DNA of 50,184 nucleotides from an uncultured Prevotellaceae bacterium (GTDB lineage Bacteria; Bacteroidota; Bacteroidia; Bacteroidales; Bacteroidaceae). Below are positions 42,599 to 50,184 of this stretch, in pieces. How positions within the stretch are numbered: position 1 is the first letter of the stretch; every line of letters starts with the position of its first letter. The notes under the pieces are model-generated. The model was not told the DNA's origin and did not search any database. It was given only the letters and a program-made list of their open reading frames with translations. The translations under genes and the position numbers were made by a program. The stretch is from NCBI GenBank assembly GCA_902780635.1, contig CACZGH010000026.1:1-50184 (forward strand), given 5' to 3'.

Positions 42599-43483
42599 TT
42601 AATCTTGGTGAACGTATTGATTAATCATTATGTGAGTACTTTCCTCTTGCTTGTCTCGCATGAGATTATAGAGGTAATCTGGAATCTTGAAAGCAGTTTT
42701 CCGATGCTTATATATTCCATCTTGTATTCTATACAAAACACCCTCGTTTATAGATCCTTGGTTCTTTTTCAATCTTTCAAGACAATTGTCAATAAATGAT
42801 TTCAAGGACTCACACGTTTCAATATCTTCTAAATTTTGTTTCCTTGTTGTAAAAAACCATTTAATGATAGGTACTAATGGAACACCTACAAAAACAACAG
42901 CTGTTTGCATACCTTCATTTTTATAAAAACCGACAAACAATATTAAGGCTAAAACACTCCAAGCGATACAATCTATAATAGTATTGAATTTCTTTCTTAG
43001 CTTTGAATCATAAGCCAGATTTGTTCTCTGACAAATAAGAGTAGCCTCTACTTTATTCAAGTCGCTAACTTGGATATCATACCAATTAACAAAGCCTTTA
43101 TCCGGAAGGTTGACATAATTATCATTAACATCTTCGGCAGAGGGTTTAGTTCCCCACACATAAGAATTCCATTCTAGTCCTAATACATCACAATCGAATA
43201 ACTGTTGAATTTTAGCAGCTAAATTTCGATGCTTTCCTGCCTTAGCTTCAAGGACGAAGCCGATGACAAGGGCAACAACACTGTACGCCATTAATGAATG
43301 AAGAACAAGATAATTGTCAGAACATATATAAAACCTGGCAAAAGATATAATTATGGGGATTAACACACAAAAAAGCATATAGGCTGTGGAATAATGCCCA
43401 GCTTTCGTGTAAAGGTGGTGTGCAGCTTTGAGCTGATTAATGTGTTCTTGCCTATTTTCTAATTCTACTATGTTATTTGCCAT
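42599..43483 (-). CDS. S-4TM-type membrane effector of CBASS
   Basis: 294 residues from the ATG at 43483; an ATG 7 codons upstream (43504) is an alternative with a larger overlap. It has two pairs of membrane helices: about 34-53 and 60-78, then about 174-193 and 198-216. The N-terminal NIVELENRQEHINQLKAAHHLYTKA and the CQRTNLAYDSKLRKKF segment before helix 3 match the SMODS-associated four-helix effector family. In such systems the effector is thought to disrupt the membrane once bound to the cyclic nucleotide. It overlaps the CD-NTase end by 11 bp and is AT-rich compared with the housekeeping genes. Confidence 0.82.
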   Translation of the reverse strand: MANNIVELENRQEHINQLKAAHHLYTKAGHYSTAYMLFCVLIPIIISFARFYICSDNYLVLHSLMAYSVVALVIGFVLEAKAGKHRNLAAKIQQLFDCDVLGLEWNSYVWGTKPSAEDVNDNYVNLPDKGFVNWYDIQVSDLNKVEATLICQRTNLAYDSKLRKKFNTIIDCIAWSVLALILFVGFYKNEGMQTAVVFVGVPLVPIIKWFFTTRKQNLEDIETCESLKSFIDNCLERLKKNQGSINEGVLYRIQDGIYKHRKTAFKIPDYLYNLMRDKQEESTHIMINQYVHQD

Positions 43484-44468
43484 ATCTAGGAAATTTAATG
43501 CCAAATACTTTAATCCATTTATTTATCGCGGCCTCAGTCATGTAATTCTGCTCATATTGAATAGCAGCACTAGCTTCAGAGGCGTCTCGTGATGCCATTA
43601 TTGCCAATCTTCTTCTATCATATAAATCCAAATCATTAATGCTACCCTGAAATCCTTTTGGGTCATAATAATCTCTCATTATTTGGAATGATAAGGTATC
43701 CAAAGCACTTTTAACAAGTTTGGGATAAGTTACGGGGAATGAGAGTAAGCTGTTAGCCCAATCAATCATTAAGTTTTCAAAAAGGTAAGAACCAACTTCA
43801 TCTCCCCAATGCTCCTTTTTCCAGTATTTCATAAGTCTTATCGCAGGCAATAATGCCCCATTGACCCGTTGGTTTGCTTGGGTCACTCTGTTTTGATCTA
43901 TTCGAGGATCCGTTCCCTTCCAGCTCCCATTTCCTTCAGGAATAACATAAAACCCTGTCGTTGTATAAAAACATGGTACTATGTCAAAGTTCCATTCATA
44001 CGAGGAGAGTTGAAGGGTAACAGCCTCTTGGTTACGGTGAATGTCGGCTTTACTATAACTGGGAATGGCACCCAACTCCCTTTTGATGGCCTCAATCATT
44101 TTTCTGGAATTAAGGACATTGCCATCACAATAATCTGGGAGCAATTTTGCATGTGGATTATTGACATATATGGGATATGTTTTTCTGGTAATCTTTGTCA
44201 CATCATCTGTCGTACATCCTTGTGCGTTAAACACAATCATGATGTCGATGTCATCCAACGGACGGATTTTTGTGTTTCTGGCAAAAGAGCCAAAGAAAAT
44301 ATGATTAGCTCCATTATATAATGGTGGAATCCTCTCGCTTTTAGCAAGGTCCTCTATTTTAAGAACAAGCCAGTCGCGGCTTGCTCTTGCTGTAGCTGTT
44401 CGTTCGGGATCAAGGTTTACGGAATCCCTCATGAAATCTTCGAAACATGAATTTACTGTGTATGCCAT
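43473..44468 (-). CDS. CD-NTase (SMODS-type nucleotidyltransferase) of CBASS
   Basis: 331 residues from MAYTVNSCFEDF at 44468; the frame extends 31 codons upstream with hydrophobic residues unlike the family. The active site is complete: Gly60-Ser61 in FFGSFARN, Asp73 and Asp75 in LDDIDIMI, and Asp162 in WNFDIVPCF. A GSWKGTDPRIDQNRV segment and an alpha-helical C-terminal part follow. Enzymes of this family make cyclic di- or trinucleotides on phage infection. With only a membrane effector beside it and no E1/E2, HORMA or TRIP13 genes, this would be a type I CBASS. Product is not predictable from sequence. Confidence 0.88.
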   Translation of the reverse strand: MAYTVNSCFEDFMRDSVNLDPERTATARASRDWLVLKIEDLAKSERIPPLYNGANHIFFGSFARNTKIRPLDDIDIMIVFNAQGCTTDDVTKITRKTYPIYVNNPHAKLLPDYCDGNVLNSRKMIEAIKRELGAIPSYSKADIHRNQEAVTLQLSSYEWNFDIVPCFYTTTGFYVIPEGNGSWKGTDPRIDQNRVTQANQRVNGALLPAIRLMKYWKKEHWGDEVGSYLFENLMIDWANSLLSFPVTYPKLVKSALDTLSFQIMRDYYDPKGFQGSINDLDLYDRRRLAIMASRDASEASAAIQYEQNYMTEAAINKWIKVFGIKFPRYGK

Positions 44469-44553
44469 TACAAGCTTTTTATTGAAAAGAAGAGCAAAAT
44501 AGATGCCAACCAACCAAATGGTGGTCATATGGTAATAATAAGGGAAAAGTATA

Positions 44554-44577
44554 TCAGTCATGTCACAGTATTACTGA
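44554..44577. promoter_or_regulatory. Inverted repeat in the CBASS/XRE divergent region
   Basis: TCAGTCAT (44554-44561) and ATTACTGA (44570-44577) pair at 7 of 8 positions around 8 nt. It lies between the divergent CD-NTase and XRE genes. It may be an operator for the XRE protein. Confidence 0.35.
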
Positions 44578-44690: not shown

Positions 44691-44897
44691 ATGGATAGTA
44701 AGCATCTCAACCGAATCAAAGTCGCTTTAGCCGAGAAAGAAAAGACTAACAAGTGGCTGGCTGAACAATTGGGCAAAGACCAAGCTACCATCTCCAAGTG
44801 GGTGACGAATACAACGCAACCTAATTTGGAGATGTTGCTCCAAATTGCAAAAGTACTTGATGTAAATATAAACGAATTAGTACGTCCTTTAGAATAA
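44691..44897 (+). CDS. XRE-family DNA-binding regulator
   Basis: 68 residues, made almost entirely of a Cro/C1-type helix-turn-helix (TNKWLAEQLGKDQATISKWVTNTTQPNLEMLLQIAKVLDVNINELV). Its TAATG stop overlaps the hsdM start by one base, so it is the first gene of the operon. By position it may act like the controller proteins of restriction-modification systems, delaying or limiting expression. It might also control the divergent CBASS genes. Confidence 0.92.
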   Translation: MDSKHLNRIKVALAEKEKTNKWLAEQLGKDQATISKWVTNTTQPNLEMLLQIAKVLDVNINELVRPLE

Positions 44898-46432
44898 TGG
44901 TAAGAAAGAAGAAAGAAACTTCTACAGGGTTGTTCGACAAGCCCAAGACCGCGCAAGAGCTTAGGCTGGAAGGTGTGCAGAACTTATACAACTTCCTGTT
45001 TGAGGCTTGCAATATCATACGCGGACCTGTGAGTCAGGACAACTTCAAAGATTATATAACGCCTATTCTCTATTACAAGCGCATCAGTGATGTGTATGAT
45101 GAAGAAACGTTGGATGCGCTTCAGGAAAGTGGTGGCGATGAAGAATACGCTTCGCTTCCAGAGCAGCACCGTTTTGTTATCCCTGACGGTTGCCACTGGC
45201 AGGATGTGCGAGAGCGCACGGAGAATCTTGGCGCTGCCATCGTTGGTGCCATGCGTGGTATAGAACTGGCTAACCCTGATACGCTCTATGGTGTACTCAG
45301 TATGTTCAGCGCACAGAAATGGACAGACAAGAAGAATCTTTCCGATGGGAAGATACGTGACCTTATTGAACATCTGAGCACTCGCAAACTGGGCAACAAA
45401 GACTATCCTACTGACCTGATGGGCGACGCCTACGAGATTTTGCTAAAGAAATTTGCTGATGACTCAAAGGCAAAGGCCGGTGAGTTCTATACTCCTCGTT
45501 CTGTGGTGCAGTTGCTTGTACGCATTCTCGATCCTCAGCCCGGTGAAAGTGTTTATGACCCTGCATGTGGATCTGGTGGAATGCTTATTGAGGCGGTCCA
45601 CCACATGAATCATAGCAGCCTTTGTTGTGGAAACATCTTCGGTCAGGAGAAGAACGTGGTTAACTCGGCTATTGCCAAAATGAACCTTTTCCTTCATGGC
45701 GCAAGCGACTTCAACATTATGCAGGGCGACACACTCCGCAACCCAAAGATTTTGCAAGGAGGCGAGGTGGCAAAGTTCGACTGCGTAATAGCCAATCCAC
45801 CATTCTCTTTGGAGAAATGGGGCTCAGTGGAATGGTCATCAGACAAATATGGACGTAACATCTGGGGAACACCCAGCGACTCATGCGGTGACTACGCTTG
45901 GATTCAGCACATGATAGCATCGATGGCTCCTGGCAAGGGGCGCATGGCGGTAGTGATGCCGCAAGGAGTTCTCTTCCGAGGCAATGAAGAAGGGCGCATC
46001 CGTGAAAAACTGGTGAAGAGCGACATGGTGGAAGCTGTTGTGACGCTTGGCGACAAACTCTTCTATGGCACAGGTCTTTCACCGTGCTTCCTGATCATTC
46101 GCAAGATGAAGCCTGCCACGCATAGTGCACGAATACTGATGATTGACGGCACAAAGATCCTGACCCCGAAACGTGCTCAAAACATTTTGGAGCAGAAAGA
46201 TATTGATCGCCTGTATGAGCTGTATTTCAATTATGAGAACGTAGAAGACTTCTCGCAAGTGGTCACGCTCAAAGAAATTGCAGCCAAAGGCTACGACCTT
46301 TCTCCTAACAAATATGTACAGTACCACCGCGAAGCAATCAAGCCCTACGCCGAGGTGCTCGCAGCATTCAAGGCTGCTTACGAAGAAGTGAAGCTTCGTG
46401 AGGCAGAGTTCAGAAACATCATTAACGCATAG
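44897..46432 (+). CDS. hsdM: Type I restriction-modification methyltransferase subunit, first copy
   Basis: 511 residues. It methylates adenine N6 together with the specificity subunit. An N-terminal helical domain (about 20-160; YNFLFEACNIIRG, ITPILYYKRISDVYDEE) precedes the methyltransferase, with the SAM-binding motif DPACGSGGM (Asp221 on) and the catalytic motif NPPF (300-303). Both are intact. The start overlaps the XRE stop by 1 bp and it is followed after 4 bp by the DUF1016 gene. It is clearly related to the second hsdM at 47480 but divergent along its length. Confidence 0.94.
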   Translation: MVRKKKETSTGLFDKPKTAQELRLEGVQNLYNFLFEACNIIRGPVSQDNFKDYITPILYYKRISDVYDEETLDALQESGGDEEYASLPEQHRFVIPDGCHWQDVRERTENLGAAIVGAMRGIELANPDTLYGVLSMFSAQKWTDKKNLSDGKIRDLIEHLSTRKLGNKDYPTDLMGDAYEILLKKFADDSKAKAGEFYTPRSVVQLLVRILDPQPGESVYDPACGSGGMLIEAVHHMNHSSLCCGNIFGQEKNVVNSAIAKMNLFLHGASDFNIMQGDTLRNPKILQGGEVAKFDCVIANPPFSLEKWGSVEWSSDKYGRNIWGTPSDSCGDYAWIQHMIASMAPGKGRMAVVMPQGVLFRGNEEGRIREKLVKSDMVEAVVTLGDKLFYGTGLSPCFLIIRKMKPATHSARILMIDGTKILTPKRAQNILEQKDIDRLYELYFNYENVEDFSQVVTLKEIAAKGYDLSPNKYVQYHREAIKPYAEVLAAFKAAYEEVKLREAEFRNIINA

Positions 46433-46436
46433 GCAG

Positions 46437-47483
46437 ATGGAAGAAATAGTTAATAAAAACAACGAGCTTGTCTTGTTTACCGATGTCTGTAGTATTATAG
46501 ATCAGACGCGAAATAGGATAGCGACATACGTCAATACAGAGGTTTGTCTTACCAACTGGCATGTAGGTAAGCGCATTAAGGAAGATGTGCTTTATAATCA
46601 GCGAGCCGAATATGGAAAGCAAATTCTTAAAAACCTCTCCAAAAAATTAACAGCTCATTATGGAGGAGGTTGGGGCTACGAGAAGTTGAAACATTGTGTA
46701 CGCAGTGCGTACCTTTTTTCGGAAGATGAAATAAGGTACGCAGCGCGTACCCAATTAACCTGGACCCATCTTCGGTCATTGATGGGGATCAAAGACTCTC
46801 TTGAACGCCAGTTTTATGCCCAGATGTGTAGCATGGAACATTGGGACACCCGGACTCTGGATGAGAAGATTGACCAGCAGCTGTATCAGCGAACAGCCAT
46901 CAGTAGGAAACCTGAAGAAGTCATTAGGCAAGAACTCGAAGAGGCTAAGACAAACAATCAGCTACTGCCAGACATGGTCTTCAGAAGTAGTTATATTCTC
47001 GATATGCTCGGCTTGCCAGATATCTTTACTGAGAAAGATTTAGAGTCCGCCATCATCACTCAAATAGAAAGTTTCATAAAAGAGTTAGGCACGGACTTCA
47101 CCTTCGTGGCACGTCAGAAACGCATCACGGTCGATGCCGTGGATTACTATATTGACTTGCTTTTCTTCCATCGGGAATTGAGACGCCTGGTTGCCATCGA
47201 TTTGAAACTGGGAAAATTTAAGCCCGAATACGAGGGGCAGATGTTACTATATCTGAGGTATCTGAACCAGAACGAAAGGAAGCAGTGGGAAGAATCGCCA
47301 ATCGGTCTTATTCTGTGCTCAGAGGGAAATACCGAGCACGTTGAATATCTCATGTTGGATGAGAATAGTCCCATAAAAGTAGCTCAATATTACACCCAAC
47401 TGCCTGACAAAAAACTTTTGGCTGACAAGCTGAAGAGAGCCATTGCCATAGCAAGAGAACAATATCAGGATCATAAGGAATGA
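46437..47483 (+). CDS. DUF1016/YhcG-type PD-(D/E)xK protein
   Basis: 348 residues from MEEIVNKNNEL at 46437, 4 bp after hsdM. The N-terminal half (TNWHVGKRIKEDVL, LSWTH-like LTWTHLRSLM) is the DUF1016 N domain. The C-terminal half has the nuclease-like pattern Asp240, then Asp255-Leu-Lys257 (AIDLK) and a downstream GQMLLYLRYL. Homologues often lie inside type I loci, but their part in restriction is unclear. It overlaps the second hsdM by 4 bp (ATGA). It contains two matching 16-bp near-palindromes. Confidence 0.9.
   Translation: MEEIVNKNNELVLFTDVCSIIDQTRNRIATYVNTEVCLTNWHVGKRIKEDVLYNQRAEYGKQILKNLSKKLTAHYGGGWGYEKLKHCVRSAYLFSEDEIRYAARTQLTWTHLRSLMGIKDSLERQFYAQMCSMEHWDTRTLDEKIDQQLYQRTAISRKPEEVIRQELEEAKTNNQLLPDMVFRSSYILDMLGLPDIFTEKDLESAIITQIESFIKELGTDFTFVARQKRITVDAVDYYIDLLFFHRELRRLVAIDLKLGKFKPEYEGQMLLYLRYLNQNERKQWEESPIGLILCSEGNTEHVEYLMLDENSPIKVAQYYTQLPDKKLLADKLKRAIAIAREQYQDHKE
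46698..46751. repeat. Pair of 16-bp near-palindromes in the DUF1016 gene
   Basis: GTACGCAGTGCGTACC (46698-46713) and GTACGCAGCGCGTACC (46736-46751) differ at one base, and each is nearly self-complementary. Starts are 38 bp apart. They lie in a less conserved part of the coding region. Confidence 0.6.
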
Positions 47484-49027
47484 TTACTATGAAGGAAGAA
47501 CATAAGAATACGCAATACCGCCGACCAGACGAGACCATCTCATTGGACGAACTGAAATCGTTCCTCTGGGGTGCTGCCACCCGTCTTCGTGGACAGATAG
47601 ACGCAGCCGGCTATAAGGAATACATCTTCCCGCTACTATTCTTTAAGCGCATTAGTGATGTATATGACGAACAGTTTGAGGGTTTTGTAGCAGAAGGTGG
47701 AGAGGAATATGCTGGTATGCAAGCTGCTGAGTTGGCCATCCGTATTCCTGACGGAGCCCATTGGCGTGATGTTCGAGAGGTAACGGAGAATGTTGGTCAG
47801 CGTTTAGTTGAAGCTTTTATCGCCATTGAACAGGCCAATCCTGGTGAAGAAGCGGATGGTCGTGTCATAGGTGGCTTGGACGGTATCTTTGGACCGAAAG
47901 ACGGATGGACCAACAAGAATAAGATGCCCGACCATATCATCACATCTCTCATTGAAGACTTCTCTCGCTATAACCTGGGGTTGTCCTCCTGTCCTGCCGA
48001 CGAGATGGGCCAGGCATACGAATATCTTGTAGGTAAGTTTGCCGACGATGCAGGAAACACTGCACAGGAGTTCTATACCAACCGAACGGTGGTAACACTG
48101 ATGGCAGAGATTCTCCAGCCACAGCCAGACGAGAGCATCTATGACCCAACATGTGGTAGTGGAGGTATGCTTGTGAAGTGTCTCGACTTCCTTCGTCAGA
48201 AAGGACAACCTTGGCAGGGTGTAAAAGTGTTCGGGCAGGAGATTAATGCACTGACTGCATCTATTGCCCGCATGAATCTCTACCTGAATGGCGTGGAGGA
48301 TTTCAGTATTGTTCGTGAAGACACACTGGCTCACCCGGCTTTTGTGGATGGTAGCCATCTGCGGAAGTTCGATATAGTGTTAGCTAATCCACCGTACTCT
48401 ATCAAGACGTGGAACCGCGAAGCCTTTATGAATGATAAGTGGGGACGCAACTTCCTTGGAACTCCTCCACAAGGACGTGCAGACTATGCTTTCATACAGC
48501 ATATCATAGCATCTATGAATACTCAACATGGCAGAAGTGCGACATTACTTCCCCATGGCGTTCTTTTCCGTGATGAAGAAAAAGAGCTACGCAAAAAAAT
48601 GGTAGAATCAGATGTCGTTGATTGCATTATCGGCTTAGGTCCTAATCTGTTCTACAATTCTCCAATGGAGGCTTGCATTATTATCTGTTCTAACAACAAA
48701 CCTGCTGAGCGGAAAGGCAAAATTCTGATGATCAATGCCATCAACGATGTCGTCCGCCAAAATGCAGAGAGTAAGTTGTTGCCCGAACATATTGAGAAAA
48801 TAACAAGGATATATCATTCATCTACCGAGATTGATGGTTATAGTAAGCTTGTTTCTAATGAAGACTTGGCAAAGAAGGACTATAACCTGAACATATCCCT
48901 CTATGCATATCGAAGTCAGTTTGTCCACGCCCAGACCTCGCTGGATGCGTCCTTGTCTGCATGGGATGAATGTAGTCAGTCTGTTTCGATAGAATATAAC
49001 ACACTAATGAAAATGTTAGAACCATGA
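47480..49027 (+). CDS. hsdM: Type I restriction-modification methyltransferase subunit, second copy
   Basis: 515 residues. Same architecture as the first copy: N-terminal helical domain with FPLLFFKRISDVYDEQFEGF, SAM motif DPTCGSGGM (from Asp222) and catalytic motif NPPY (303-306). A second ATG three codons in (47489) could also be the start. It overlaps the DUF1016 gene by 4 bp and hsdS by 4 bp. Being directly coupled to hsdS, it is the more likely partner of the specificity subunit. Both copies look active. Confidence 0.94.
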   Translation: MITMKEEHKNTQYRRPDETISLDELKSFLWGAATRLRGQIDAAGYKEYIFPLLFFKRISDVYDEQFEGFVAEGGEEYAGMQAAELAIRIPDGAHWRDVREVTENVGQRLVEAFIAIEQANPGEEADGRVIGGLDGIFGPKDGWTNKNKMPDHIITSLIEDFSRYNLGLSSCPADEMGQAYEYLVGKFADDAGNTAQEFYTNRTVVTLMAEILQPQPDESIYDPTCGSGGMLVKCLDFLRQKGQPWQGVKVFGQEINALTASIARMNLYLNGVEDFSIVREDTLAHPAFVDGSHLRKFDIVLANPPYSIKTWNREAFMNDKWGRNFLGTPPQGRADYAFIQHIIASMNTQHGRSATLLPHGVLFRDEEKELRKKMVESDVVDCIIGLGPNLFYNSPMEACIIICSNNKPAERKGKILMINAINDVVRQNAESKLLPEHIEKITRIYHSSTEIDGYSKLVSNEDLAKKDYNLNISLYAYRSQFVHAQTSLDASLSAWDECSQSVSIEYNTLMKMLEP

Positions 49028-50184
49028 GTGAAAATAACTTTGTTAAACTTGGAGATGTAGCCCACGAATGCAGACTTACTTGGAGTGGAGGGCAAACAGA
49101 CATTCCCATTGTTGGGTTAGAACATCTTGTCCCTGGCGAGATTGAGTTATCTTCATGGGATAGCAACATAGAGCATACATTCTCAAAGAAGTTCCTGAAA
49201 GGGCAAGTTCTTCTTGGGCGTCGTCGTGTTTATCTGAAAAAGGCGGTGGTGGCCCCGTGTGATGGTATTTGTTCTGGCGACATCACTGTGATAGAATCTA
49301 CAGGAGGAATACTTCCTGAACTACTTCCTTTTGTCATTCAAAACGACAGGTTCTTTGACTATGCGATGCAAGGCTCAGCAGGCTCGCTTTCACCTCGTGT
49401 AAAGTGGGAGCATCTAAAGAACTATGAATTTCCACTTCCTCCTCTCACTGAACAAAAGGTTCTTGCTGATAAACTTTGGGCGGCATATCGTCTGAAGGAA
49501 TCATACAAGAAACTGCTTGCTGCCACCGAAGAAATGGTGAAATCGCAATTTATCGAGATGTTTGGTAGTGGTAATTGGCCAGAAAAACGTTTGGGCGAAG
49601 TCGGTTCTTTTACGCGCGGAGGTGGATTTCAGAAATCAGATTATGTAGAACATGGCATCCCTTGTATTCATTATGGTCAGATACACACAAAATTTGGTCC
49701 TTTCATATCTTCACACATCACAGAAATATCTTCAGATTTAGAATCTAAAACAAAGTTTGCATCAAAGGGTGATGTAATTATCGCAATCACTAGTGAAGAT
49801 ACAGAAGGGTCATGTAAGAGTACAGCCTGGTTAGGTGACTATTCTGTTGCAGTAGGAGGCCATGCAGCCATATATAAACATAGTATGAATCCGCTGTATA
49901 TGACTTTCTTTCTTCACTCGACGTTATTTAACCACGCAAAAATGGAATATGTACACGGTACAAAAGTTTTTGAGATACGACCAGATGACATAGCTAAAAT
50001 ATTGGTTCCATGCCCTCCAATTAGTTTGCAAGAGAAATTTGCAACTATAGCTCATCAGGCCGATAAATCAGGATTTGACGGGCGCAAATCGCAATTTATC
50101 GAGATGACGGGTGATCCGCGAACAAATCCCAAAGGTTGGCCAGTAAAGACACTTCCTGAATTGGCTACTTATTCAATAGGGCTT
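49024..50184 (+). CDS. hsdS: Type I restriction specificity subunit HsdS, cut by the window end
   Basis: At least 387 residues, open at the right edge. It starts with ATG overlapping the hsdM stop (ATGA). Target-recognition domain 1 covers about 1-140, then a helical linker ending KSQFIEMFG (about 173-181). Domain 2 (NWPEKRLGEVGSFTRGGG to FEIRPDDIAKILVPCPPI) covers about 183-340, with a second linker ending KSQFIEMTG. A new domain start (GWPVKTLPELATYSIGL) then begins at about 370. Two domains are the rule for HsdS, so a third is unusual. The two linker ends are identical over 21 bp of DNA (see repeats). Confidence 0.92.
   Translation, partial: MSENNFVKLGDVAHECRLTWSGGQTDIPIVGLEHLVPGEIELSSWDSNIEHTFSKKFLKGQVLLGRRRVYLKKAVVAPCDGICSGDITVIESTGGILPELLPFVIQNDRFFDYAMQGSAGSLSPRVKWEHLKNYEFPLPPLTEQKVLADKLWAAYRLKESYKKLLAATEEMVKSQFIEMFGSGNWPEKRLGEVGSFTRGGGFQKSDYVEHGIPCIHYGQIHTKFGPFISSHITEISSDLESKTKFASKGDVIIAITSEDTEGSCKSTAWLGDYSVAVGGHAAIYKHSMNPLYMTFFLHSTLFNHAKMEYVHGTKVFEIRPDDIAKILVPCPPISLQEKFATIAHQADKSGFDGRKSQFIEMTGDPRTNPKGWPVKTLPELATYSIGL
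49540..49560 (+). repeat. 21-bp direct repeat in hsdS, copy 1
   Basis: Begins AAATCGCAAT and ends TTATCGAGATG, encoding KSQFIEM. An exact second copy lies at 50086-50106, 546 bp (182 codons) on and in the same frame. Confidence 0.9.
50086..50106 (+). repeat. 21-bp direct repeat in hsdS, copy 2
   Basis: Exact copy of 49540-49560, same strand and same reading frame. Together they flank the second target-recognition domain. Confidence 0.9.

What the first reader, a model, noticed from the sequence alone, without database searches (positions are those of the whole stretch)
49024..50184. hsdS with in-frame 21-bp direct repeats around domain 2 and the start of a third recognition domain
The sequence shows identical 21-bp segments at 49540-49560 and 50086-50106, both in the hsdS frame and 182 codons apart. 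Each is the end of a helical linker (KSQFIEM), and each is followed by a fresh recognition-domain start. Recombination between them would keep the frame, delete domain 2 and join domain 1 to domain 3, giving another DNA specificity. Phase-variable HsdS through recombination is known in Bacteroidales and other bacteria, usually via inverted repeats. A direct-repeat arrangement in one long frame with three domains is less common.
Basis: partly seen in the sequence, partly recalled or inferred. Interest (0 to 1): 0.7.

Follow-up and report, generated by a model that had tools for sequence, protein, structure and literature searches.

The report
TRD-shuffling type I restriction locus
A gut bacterium's restriction enzyme carries swappable DNA-recognition modules bounded by recombination sites; the same kind of system is known from pneumococcus, and here it is found in another phylum with clues to how the swap is steered.

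Summary
Two identical 21-bp copies (49540-49560, 50086-50106) lie in one hsdS frame 546 bp apart, the only copies in the 4.07-Mb assembly. The window is a whole contig, so the third domain runs off the assembly.

Relatives show the intact locus: hsdM1-(yhcG)-hsdM2-hsdS-tyrosine recombinase-silent recognition-domain (TRD) cassettes-hsdR. The repeat ("L") is one edge of a mobile TRD cassette; a second conserved site ("R", QADKS codons) is the other. L repeats directly: 93 copies, 0 inverted. The window's domain 2 is a silent-type cassette joined to domain 1.

Draft contigs from several genomes end at L or R, as expected if several junctions coexist; the window ends 99 bp from the start of its second L.

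Recombinase and sites are homologous to tvr-like streptococcal loci, so this is probably a Bacteroidota branch of the pneumococcal tvr (excision-reintegration) kind. Sister recombinases invert TRDs at AAAT-N4-ATTT sites. Inverting loci have reverse-complementary 4-bp centres; direct-repeat loci do not. That suggests the centre decides the mode.

Untested: activity, a circle, and whether the three-domain frame is a real state or a chimeric assembly path.

The parts
44897..46432 (+). hsdM1, type I methyltransferase subunit (first of two)
   Evidence: Pfam HsdM_N + N6_Mtase; PADLOC MTase_I; orthologs in the related loci
46398..47483 (+). YhcG/DUF1016-family PD-(D/E)XK nuclease between the two hsdM genes (ORF from GTG; an in-frame ATG lies at 46437)
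   Evidence: Pfam DUF1016_N + YhcG_C; among related loci seen between the hsdM genes in L051, L052, L055, L056
47480..49027 (+). hsdM2, second type I methyltransferase subunit, overlaps the hsdS start by 4 bp
   Evidence: Pfam HsdM_N + N6_Mtase; query
49024..50184 (+). hsdS, open at the 3' end because the contig ends; TRD1, TRD2 and the first 26 codons of TRD3
49540..49560 (+). L site, first copy (core AAAT-CGCA-ATTT at 49540-49551), left edge of the TRD2 cassette
   Evidence: sharp change of similarity exactly here
49561..50061 (+). TRD2 cassette body, homologous to the first silent cassette of Phocaeicola oris L082 and to the expressed TRD2 of L060
   Evidence: 85% aa to the L082 silent cassette; nucleotide mosaic
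50056..50076 (+). R site CAGGCC-GATAAATCAGGATTT (core AAAT-CAGG-ATTT at 50065-50076), right edge of the TRD2 cassette
50086..50106 (+). L site, second copy; left edge of the TRD3 cassette; preceded by the silent-cassette type linker
   Evidence: contig ends 99 bp counted from its first base
50107..50184 (+). start of TRD3
   Evidence: homologous to the TRD expressed in L062

Best explanation
[quoted passage not shown] Each cassette runs from an L site (end of the central linker) to an R site (start of the C-terminal tail). In intact relatives the expressed cassette is followed by its C-terminal tail and a tyrosine recombinase gene; then come, as a rule, two silent cassettes bounded by the same sites in the same direction, then hsdR. 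The recombinase joins L to L and R to R. L x L excises a circle with the expressed cassette, tail and recombinase; re-entry through R exchanges two cassettes and changes the DNA specificity. Excision without re-entry leaves TRD1-TRD2-TRD3 in one frame, the arrangement in the window. Shown by sequence: site and cassette anatomy, direct orientation, the same cassette in different positions in different loci, draft contigs ending at the sites, homology of recombinase and sites to tvr-like loci. Inferred: that this recombinase acts on L and R, that a circle forms, and that specificity changes. The same mechanism class was shown experimentally for the pneumococcal tvr locus (PMC6265443: abstract, section 14 and passages seen).
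For: Intact gene order in relatives. L core: 93 copies on the hsd strand, 0 inverted, up to 3 mismatches, in the window plus 73 loci. L codons nearly invariant while neighbouring codons vary. Nucleotide mosaic breaks at L: window vs L051 80-100% before, 15-36% after; window vs L060 25-43% over most of TRD1 (78-81% in the linker just before L), 88-95% after; window vs silent cassette L082 19-43% before L, 72-96% after L through R. 60 TRD pairs of at least 65% identity between loci, 44 with a different right-hand context. R-centre codon uniform within 18 of 18 loci, 0 of 20,000 shuffles as high. Of 15 contigs that end in the hsdS region and have a site, 7 end inside or within 5 bp after L or R and 4 end 55, 55, 99 or 141 bp from the start of a site core. 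One genome has one contig ending at L and another running from R to the next L. All 14 loci with the recombinase have the expressed tail; the 7 loci with another tail lack it. Streptococcal tvr-like loci have a 63-64% identical recombinase and L-like and R-like sites.
Against: No recombination was observed directly; no circle junction was seen or searched for. The window's own assembly has neither this recombinase (best 30% identity) nor this hsdR. Four of 15 contig ends are not explained (L060 346 bp, L105 82, L116 41, L283 64). Seven loci have the expressed tail but no recombinase (L059, L068, L071, L088; L184, L186, L187), so the link of tail and recombinase is one-sided. The L core also occurs in two viral contigs in a context unrelated to hsd genes (L281, L282). 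Runs with two L sites and no recombinase occur in the window and in three metagenome assemblies (L054, L072, L113) but in none of the isolate Bacteroidota genomes with full loci, so they may be assembly chimeras. Strain mixtures would also produce the contig ends.
Confidence: 0.82

Rival explanations
1. The three-domain frame in this contig is a chimeric assembly path (compatible with the best explanation for the locus as a whole). Some cells carry TRD1 joined to the domain-2 cassette, others carry that cassette in the silent array before domain 3; a short-read assembler strings the two together because a TRD (about 500 bp) is longer than a read. The shuffling system is real but the three-domain protein is not.
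For: Predicts exactly the observed order with no recombinase in between. Such runs are seen in the window and in three metagenome assemblies (L054, L072, L113) but not in the isolate or complete genomes L056, L070, L073, L075, L082, which have the full arrangement. In L067's genome the pieces are split at L and R.
Against: Excision without re-entry yields the same order; a shortened locus after loss of the circle is described for tvr mutants (PMC6265443, passages). L072 and L113 run on into hsdR, and the genomes of L054, L072 and L113 have no recombinase match at E 1e-60, which fits loss but also fits unbinned contigs.
Confidence: 0.45
2. Exchange is by ordinary RecA-type homologous recombination or gene conversion between short similar stretches over evolutionary time; L and R are conserved because the protein needs them, not as recombinase sites.
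For: L and R encode conserved residues (invariant columns). TRDs clearly move between lineages.
Against: Synonymous positions inside L are nearly fixed while those next to it vary. A recombinase gene sits inside the intact locus and ends next to an L site. In closed Lactococcus plasmids carrying a 60% identical recombinase, near-identical loci differ by inversions and swaps with breakpoints at the corresponding AAAT-CATC-ATTT sites. Contig ends cluster at L and R.
Confidence: 0.1
3. The direct repeats are remnants: the locus has lost its recombinase and is a static hsdS with an extra domain.
For: The recombinase is not in the window's assembly. Loci without recombinase and with a single L exist (for example L055, L058, L083).
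Against: hsdR of this locus and the rest of TRD3 are also missing from the assembly, so the downstream piece is simply absent. The contig ends 99 bp from the first base of the second L, as expected for a graph branch at that site. A near relative with 98% identical HsdM2 (L051) has the recombinase.
Confidence: 0.15

Closest known systems
tvr locus (SpnIV type I system) of Streptococcus pneumoniae, Kwun et al. 2018, PMC6265443 (abstract, section 14 and passages seen)
   Same: Tyrosine recombinase inside the locus; two kinds of direct repeat, one ~18 bp at the hsdS midpoint and one at the tail; all in one direction; TRDs on both sides of the recombinase; the TRD next to hsdM does not move; shortened locus in some mutants. 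tvr-like loci in unnamed Streptococcus genomes have a 63-64% identical recombinase and sites matching L (3 mismatches) and R.
   Different: Here two hsdM genes (and sometimes yhcG) instead of one; no Doc-type toxin or its partner was found between hsdS and recombinase; L and R centres are CGCA and CAGG/CAGA/CAAA against CCCG and CACA; found in Bacteroidota and several Bacillota.
SsuCC20p-type inverting type I systems (S. suis; PMC10790761, passages seen) and related Lactobacillales plasmid loci
   Same: Related loci share the recombinase family (about 60% identity) and the site core AAAT-N4-ATTT; recombinase dependence in S. suis is reported by that paper. The S. suis recombinase itself was not compared here.
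   Different: Sites flanking a TRD are inverted with reverse-complementary centres (TAAATCATCATTTA / TAAATGATGATTTA) and TRDs lie on both strands; here every site and TRD lies in one direction.
hsdS shufflon of Bacteroides fragilis NCTC 9343 (PMC3090145, passages seen)
   Same: Bacteroidales, type I hsdS shuffling, tyrosine integrase next to hsdS.
   Different: Four sets of inverted repeats (the 38-bp repeat quoted there does not look like L or R by eye); inversion, not direct exchange.
hsdS genes with direct repeats in Mycoplasma faucium (PMC11062135, passages seen)
   Same: Several hsdS genes between hsdM and hsdR with direct repeats; recombination suggested by the authors.
   Different: The passages seen name no recombinase in that locus; repeat sequences were not compared.

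Membership tests
Type I restriction-modification system | hsdM and hsdS genes of the type I families | tested here: met
   Pfam HsdM_N, N6_Mtase and Methylase_S over cut-off
Type I restriction-modification system | hsdR with the locus | tested here: inconclusive
   Absent from the window's assembly; directly downstream in orthologous loci such as L055, L056, L072
tvr-type excision-reintegration hsdS system | Tyrosine recombinase homologous to that of tvr loci, inside the locus | tested here: inconclusive
   Not in the window's assembly; present in 14 of 40 related loci tabulated; 63-64% identical to the recombinase of tvr-like streptococcal loci and grouped with them in a tree (support 94/87). 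The pneumococcal TvrR itself was not compared by name
tvr-type excision-reintegration hsdS system | Two kinds of direct repeat with a shared core, one at the hsdS midpoint and one at the tail | tested here: met
   L and R; in the window two L and one R are visible. The repeat sequences in the pneumococcal paper's supplement were not seen
tvr-type excision-reintegration hsdS system | All TRD cassettes on one strand | tested here: met
   93 L copies direct, 0 inverted; 24 and 16 copies in whole genomes, one strand per genome
tvr-type excision-reintegration hsdS system | Circular intermediate and recombinase-dependent switching | not testable with these tools
   Needs PCR or long reads
tvr-type excision-reintegration hsdS system | Toxin-antitoxin pair next to the recombinase (pneumococcal tvrAT) | tested here: not met
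   Between hsdS and recombinase 8 of 14 loci have under 50 bp or an overlap; 6 have at least one ORF on the hsd strand, the main one of each hitting no Doc or antitoxin family; present in L172 (TIGR01550). Taken as a feature of the pneumococcal locus, not of the mechanism. Not testable in the window itself
Inverted-repeat hsdS shufflon | Inverted repeats with reverse-complementary centres and TRDs on both strands | tested here: not met

The most novel reading that the evidence does not exclude
One recombinase family runs two kinds of hsdS shuffling, and the four bases at the centre of its site decide which. The site is two arms around a 4-bp centre, AAAT-N4-ATTT. If the two sites flanking a cassette have reverse-complementary centres (CATC/GATG, ACTA/TAGT, GATA/TATC), the cassette can be inverted. 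If the centres do not match (L CGCA with R CANN in Bacteroidota; CCCG with CACA in tvr-like loci), inversion is forbidden and only L x L and R x R exchange is possible: a natural counterpart of laboratory recombinase-mediated cassette exchange with incompatible sites. Support: in 13 of 14 loci classed as inverting the centres pair this way (the fourteenth shows only one site; two sets of four are near-copies); in 20 of 24 direct loci both sites were seen and none pairs; the two modes are separated by one change in a 39-row recombinase tree, support 94/87.
Probability: 0.5. Interest if true: 0.75.

Novelty: new variant of a known kind. Interest (0 to 1): 0.6.

Why it matters
A mechanism described experimentally in pneumococcus is here inferred in gut and rumen Bacteroidota (Segatella/Prevotella, Bacteroides, Phocaeicola, Parabacteroides) and in several Bacillota, so specificity switching by cassette exchange may be more widespread than reported and hidden by assembly breaks. 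Scans that look only for inverted repeats would miss it. The site comparison gives a concrete rule, testable on plasmids, for why some of these systems invert and others exchange, and the contig-end signature is a cheap way to find candidate shuffling loci in draft assemblies.

Tried and rejected
Looking for the missing downstream piece in the window's assembly: searches with an hsdR ortholog, a recombinase ortholog and a relative of TRD3 found nothing that continues the locus. In L067's genome (G934) I looked for a contig starting at the third R: of contigs C1-C50 the ends were read except the far end of C9 (whether more contigs exist was not checked); only C9 (= L067) and C50 showed sites; the hsdR piece was not found.

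Same-orientation alignment of L and R as the basis of their kinship: 11/15 matches, reached by 343 of 5000 shuffles, so not significant; the inverted alignment 14/21 is (1 of 5000). The core is nearly palindromic, and in the streptococcal sites the same-orientation core looks as good (by eye), so I claim no fixed relative orientation of arms beyond Bacteroidota.

Position classes printed are partly wrong (some expressed cassettes labelled S2), so I used only the right-hand context for counts; L052, cut by its contig end, was counted as expressed tail there. Dropped rows: 10 of 72 cassettes were incomplete; L076 (partial) was left out of the tree; L069, L085 and L111 were left out of the contig-end count because no credible site was found near the end. 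For recombinase against tail, the Fisher test (p 0.0007) used 25 loci and left out L052, L081, L117 and contigs that stop early; with L184, L186, L187 and L117 added it is p 0.006; relatedness is ignored in both. The null model for contig ends assumes uniform ends over 1150 bp and assembler k values recalled from memory; the assemblers of these records were not checked.

The 73 loci were fetched by HsdM2 similarity and L was called at up to 3 mismatches, so the near-invariance of L is partly by selection; most copies had 0 mismatches.

Two of the 14 loci classed as inverting do not show it by gene strands: L288 has its three annotated hsdS pieces on one strand and L176 contains runs of N; they were classed by recombinase and site.

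Scans of viral contigs with the L core (5 stretches, 3 of them hsd loci) and of plasmids with the recombinase were for relatives; neither tested for a circle.

Literature: 10 searches used. 'Translocating variable restriction' gave 5 papers, by titles and abstracts in the listing pneumococcal; no held paper combined hsdS, excision, circular and Bacteroidota. A REBASE survey (PMC7394358, passages) has no mention of direct repeats or excision in its main text. Subscription papers and preprints are not covered.
Full report
What was claimed and what is there. The two 21-bp copies are exact, in frame, and 546 bp apart in hsdS. They are the only two copies in the 4.07-Mb assembly. The window is the whole contig C26, 50,184 bases, so hsdS stops only because the contig does. 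hsdS follows hsdM1, a YhcG/DUF1016 nuclease gene and hsdM2. The own assembly holds no continuation: the matches to an hsdR ortholog and the recombinase are distant, and those to a TRD3 relative are the window itself.

The intact locus in relatives. HsdM2 was used to fetch 73 loci. In 14 of 40 Bacteroidota-type loci tabulated (two of the 14 are filed as Fibrobacter), hsdS is followed by a tyrosine recombinase gene (Rec), as a rule then by two silent TRDs and hsdR on the same strand (L076 has one silent TRD, L051 ends inside the silent array). Rec belongs to the Phage_integrase/XerA-like family (nearest solved structure by sequence XerA). In L056 its frame ends 4 bp before an L site; the silent frame starts with that L, carries a TRD, an R, another L and a last TRD.

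Two sites define a cassette. On the left is L, AAATCGCAATTTATCGAGATG (KSQFIEM). On the right is R, CAGGCC-GATAAATCA-N3-TTT or close to it (QADKSxF). L repeats directly: 93 copies on the hsd strand and 0 inverted at up to 3 mismatches in the window plus 73 loci. The repeat finder gives direct families covering L and R and no inverted pairs in L056, L062, L074 and L082. In 34 Bacteroidota-type loci the L codons are nearly fixed (TTT 34 of 34, ATC 34 of 34, TCG 30 of 31 serines) while neighbouring alanine, threonine and leucine codons vary (loci were chosen by similarity to L, a bias).

Cassettes move. Of 62 complete cassettes (of 72), 60 pairs in different loci share at least 65% protein identity and 44 of these have a different right-hand context; among 17 pairs of at least 90%, 12 do. 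The R-centre codon follows the locus, not the cassette: uniform in 18 of 18 loci with more than one cassette, mean 3.8 and maximum 11 in 20,000 shuffles. The window itself is a mosaic with its joint at L: against L051 identity is 80-100% up to and through L and 15-36% after it; against L060 it is 25-43% over most of TRD1, 78-81% in the linker just before L, and 88-95% after L; against the first silent cassette of Phocaeicola oris (L082) it is 19-43% before L and 72-96% from just after L through R to the next L. So the window's domain 2 is a silent-type cassette, linker included, joined to domain 1.

Contig ends as evidence for alternative junctions. A 21-bp repeat alone should not stop an assembler, but several coexisting junctions at it should (reasoning from how de Bruijn graph assemblers cut contigs, recalled). 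Fifteen contigs that end in the hsdS region have a site nearby. Seven end inside or at most 5 bp after L or R (L053, L063, L067, L091, L095, L097, L100; L091 is an isolate genome by its title). Four end at 55 (L051), 55 (L052, from R), 99 (window) and 141 bp (L065) from the first base of a site core, values that are common assembler word lengths (recalled). Four are not explained: L060 346, L105 82, L116 41, L283 64. Under uniform ends, 7 of 15 has probability about 8e-7 (a rough model). The clearest case is L067's genome: its hsdS contig ends at L plus TTT, and a separate 3,703-bp contig begins one base before R with the expressed tail, carries Rec and a silent cassette, and ends at the next L plus TTT. 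Mixed strains in a sample would give the same picture, so this speaks for recombination at these points in the population, not for its rate.

States of the locus. All 14 loci with Rec have the expressed tail; 7 loci with another tail lack Rec. This is what L x L deletion predicts, since tail and Rec leave together. But 7 loci have the expressed tail without Rec (4, 3), so the link is one-sided (Fisher p 0.0007 or 0.006 by the rows used, relatedness ignored). Two L sites in one run without Rec occur in L054, L072 and L113, as in the window; L054 and L072 are single frames of 530 and 551 codons, in L113 the domain-1 frame does not run on. Pfam sees three Methylase_S stretches in L054 and two in L072. 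All three are metagenome assemblies by title, so a chimeric path is not excluded.

Cargo. Between hsdS and Rec, 8 of 14 loci have under 50 bp or an overlap; 6 carry a main ORF on the hsd strand. In L062 (Parabacteroides) it is an AriAB-type protein (PADLOC, E 2.5e-205), in L057 and L070 an SLFN_AlbA_2/HATPase_c_4 protein; three have no hit. By the excision model this cargo would leave with the circle.

What it is related to. The pneumococcal tvr locus switches by recombinase-mediated excision and reintegration with two types of direct repeat (PMC6265443). In 147 Streptococcus genomes, 8 carry a close Rec homolog of at least 62% identity (the query's own genome is one of the 8). Three of those loci (L172, L174, L175) have the tvr layout: single hsdM, hsdS, two small genes, Rec at 63-64% identity, TRD, and hsdR where the contig reaches it; the small genes of L172 hit a MazE/Doc-partner antitoxin family (below cut-off) and a Doc toxin family, those of L174 and L175 look the same by eye. 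They have an L-like site AAATCCCGATTTAACGAGATG and an R-like site GACAAATCACAATTT or -TTG. The window's system works like tvr and is probably its Bacteroidota branch.

A rule about the sites. Plasmids carry Rec homologs of 55-67% identity. In 9 of 10 Lactobacillales plasmid loci read, annotated hsdS pieces lie on both strands (L288 is the exception). Closed Lactococcus plasmids pJM2A, pJM1A and pUCCL627F, 98.5-100% identical in their main matching blocks here, differ by inversions and swaps whose breakpoints overlap the sites AAAT-CATC-ATTT and AAAT-GATG-ATTT. The same sequences are the inverted repeats of S. suis SsuCC20p, whose switching depends on the recombinase in the locus (PMC10790761, passages). 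Across loci the core is AAAT-N4-ATTT. In 13 of 14 loci classed as inverting, centres occur as reverse-complementary pairs (two sets of four near-copies; the fourteenth shows one site). In 20 of 24 direct loci both sites were seen and no L centre is the reverse complement of an R centre. In Bacteroidota, L and inverted R match at 14 of 21 positions (1 of 5000 shuffles). In a tree of 39 recombinases the 23 direct and 14 inverting rows are separated by one change, support 94/87, with long branches among the rest. I read this as one enzyme family whose site centres decide whether cassettes invert or are exchanged directly. It is an inference from natural loci.

Verdict. New, as far as the ten searches of the held library show, are the spread of this kind to Bacteroidota with a two-hsdM locus, the second site R there, the contig-end signature and the centre rule. 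Direct repeats in hsdS are also reported for Mycoplasma faucium (PMC11062135, passages).

Noticed in passing
window 42599-43504 (-) and 43473-44561 (-): A CBASS-like pair beside the RM locus: an S-4TM effector (PF18159, E 8e-64) and a SMODS nucleotide cyclase (PF18144; PADLOC Cyclase, E 2.5e-114).
   Followed up: partly
L062:12666-14219; also L051, L057, L064, L070, L082 between hsdS and recombinase: Six of 14 intact loci carry an extra ORF in the segment that would be excised; in L062 it is an AriAB-type defence protein (PADLOC E 2.5e-205; AriAB is PARIS, recalled), in L057 and L070 a Schlafen/AlbA_2 protein.
   Followed up: partly
window 46398-47483 (+): A YhcG/DUF1016 nuclease gene (PADLOC PDC-S02) sits between the two hsdM genes; L051, L052, L055 and L056 have it there, the other loci printed do not.
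   Followed up: no
L150 (G280) and L185 (G773): Recombinase plus TRD cassettes with L sites but no hsdM or hsdR matched in the stretch read: orphan cassette stores or remnants.
   Followed up: no
L056:13712, L062:15307, L073:13724, L082:14838 and others: At the L site behind the recombinase the first codon is often ATG instead of AAA, giving the silent array a possible start codon right after the recombinase stop; it might be translated as a protein of two silent TRDs lacking TRD1.
   Followed up: no
L057:4753 and L113:12052: The frame of domain 1 does not run on into the L site, so hsdS looks switched off by a frame change just before L.
   Followed up: no
L061, L066, L083: Both L (KSRFIEM instead of KSQFIEM) and R (GGGTTT or GGGTCT) differ from the usual sites at the corresponding arm position, as if the two sites change together.
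   Followed up: no
L071:9998-12730: hsdM2 and hsdS lie in one 911-codon frame in this locus.
   Followed up: no
L292:8001-8999: A Rec homolog (58% identity) on a plasmid of the archaeon Methanosphaera sp. ISO3-F5 with no hsdS annotated within 8 kb.
   Followed up: no
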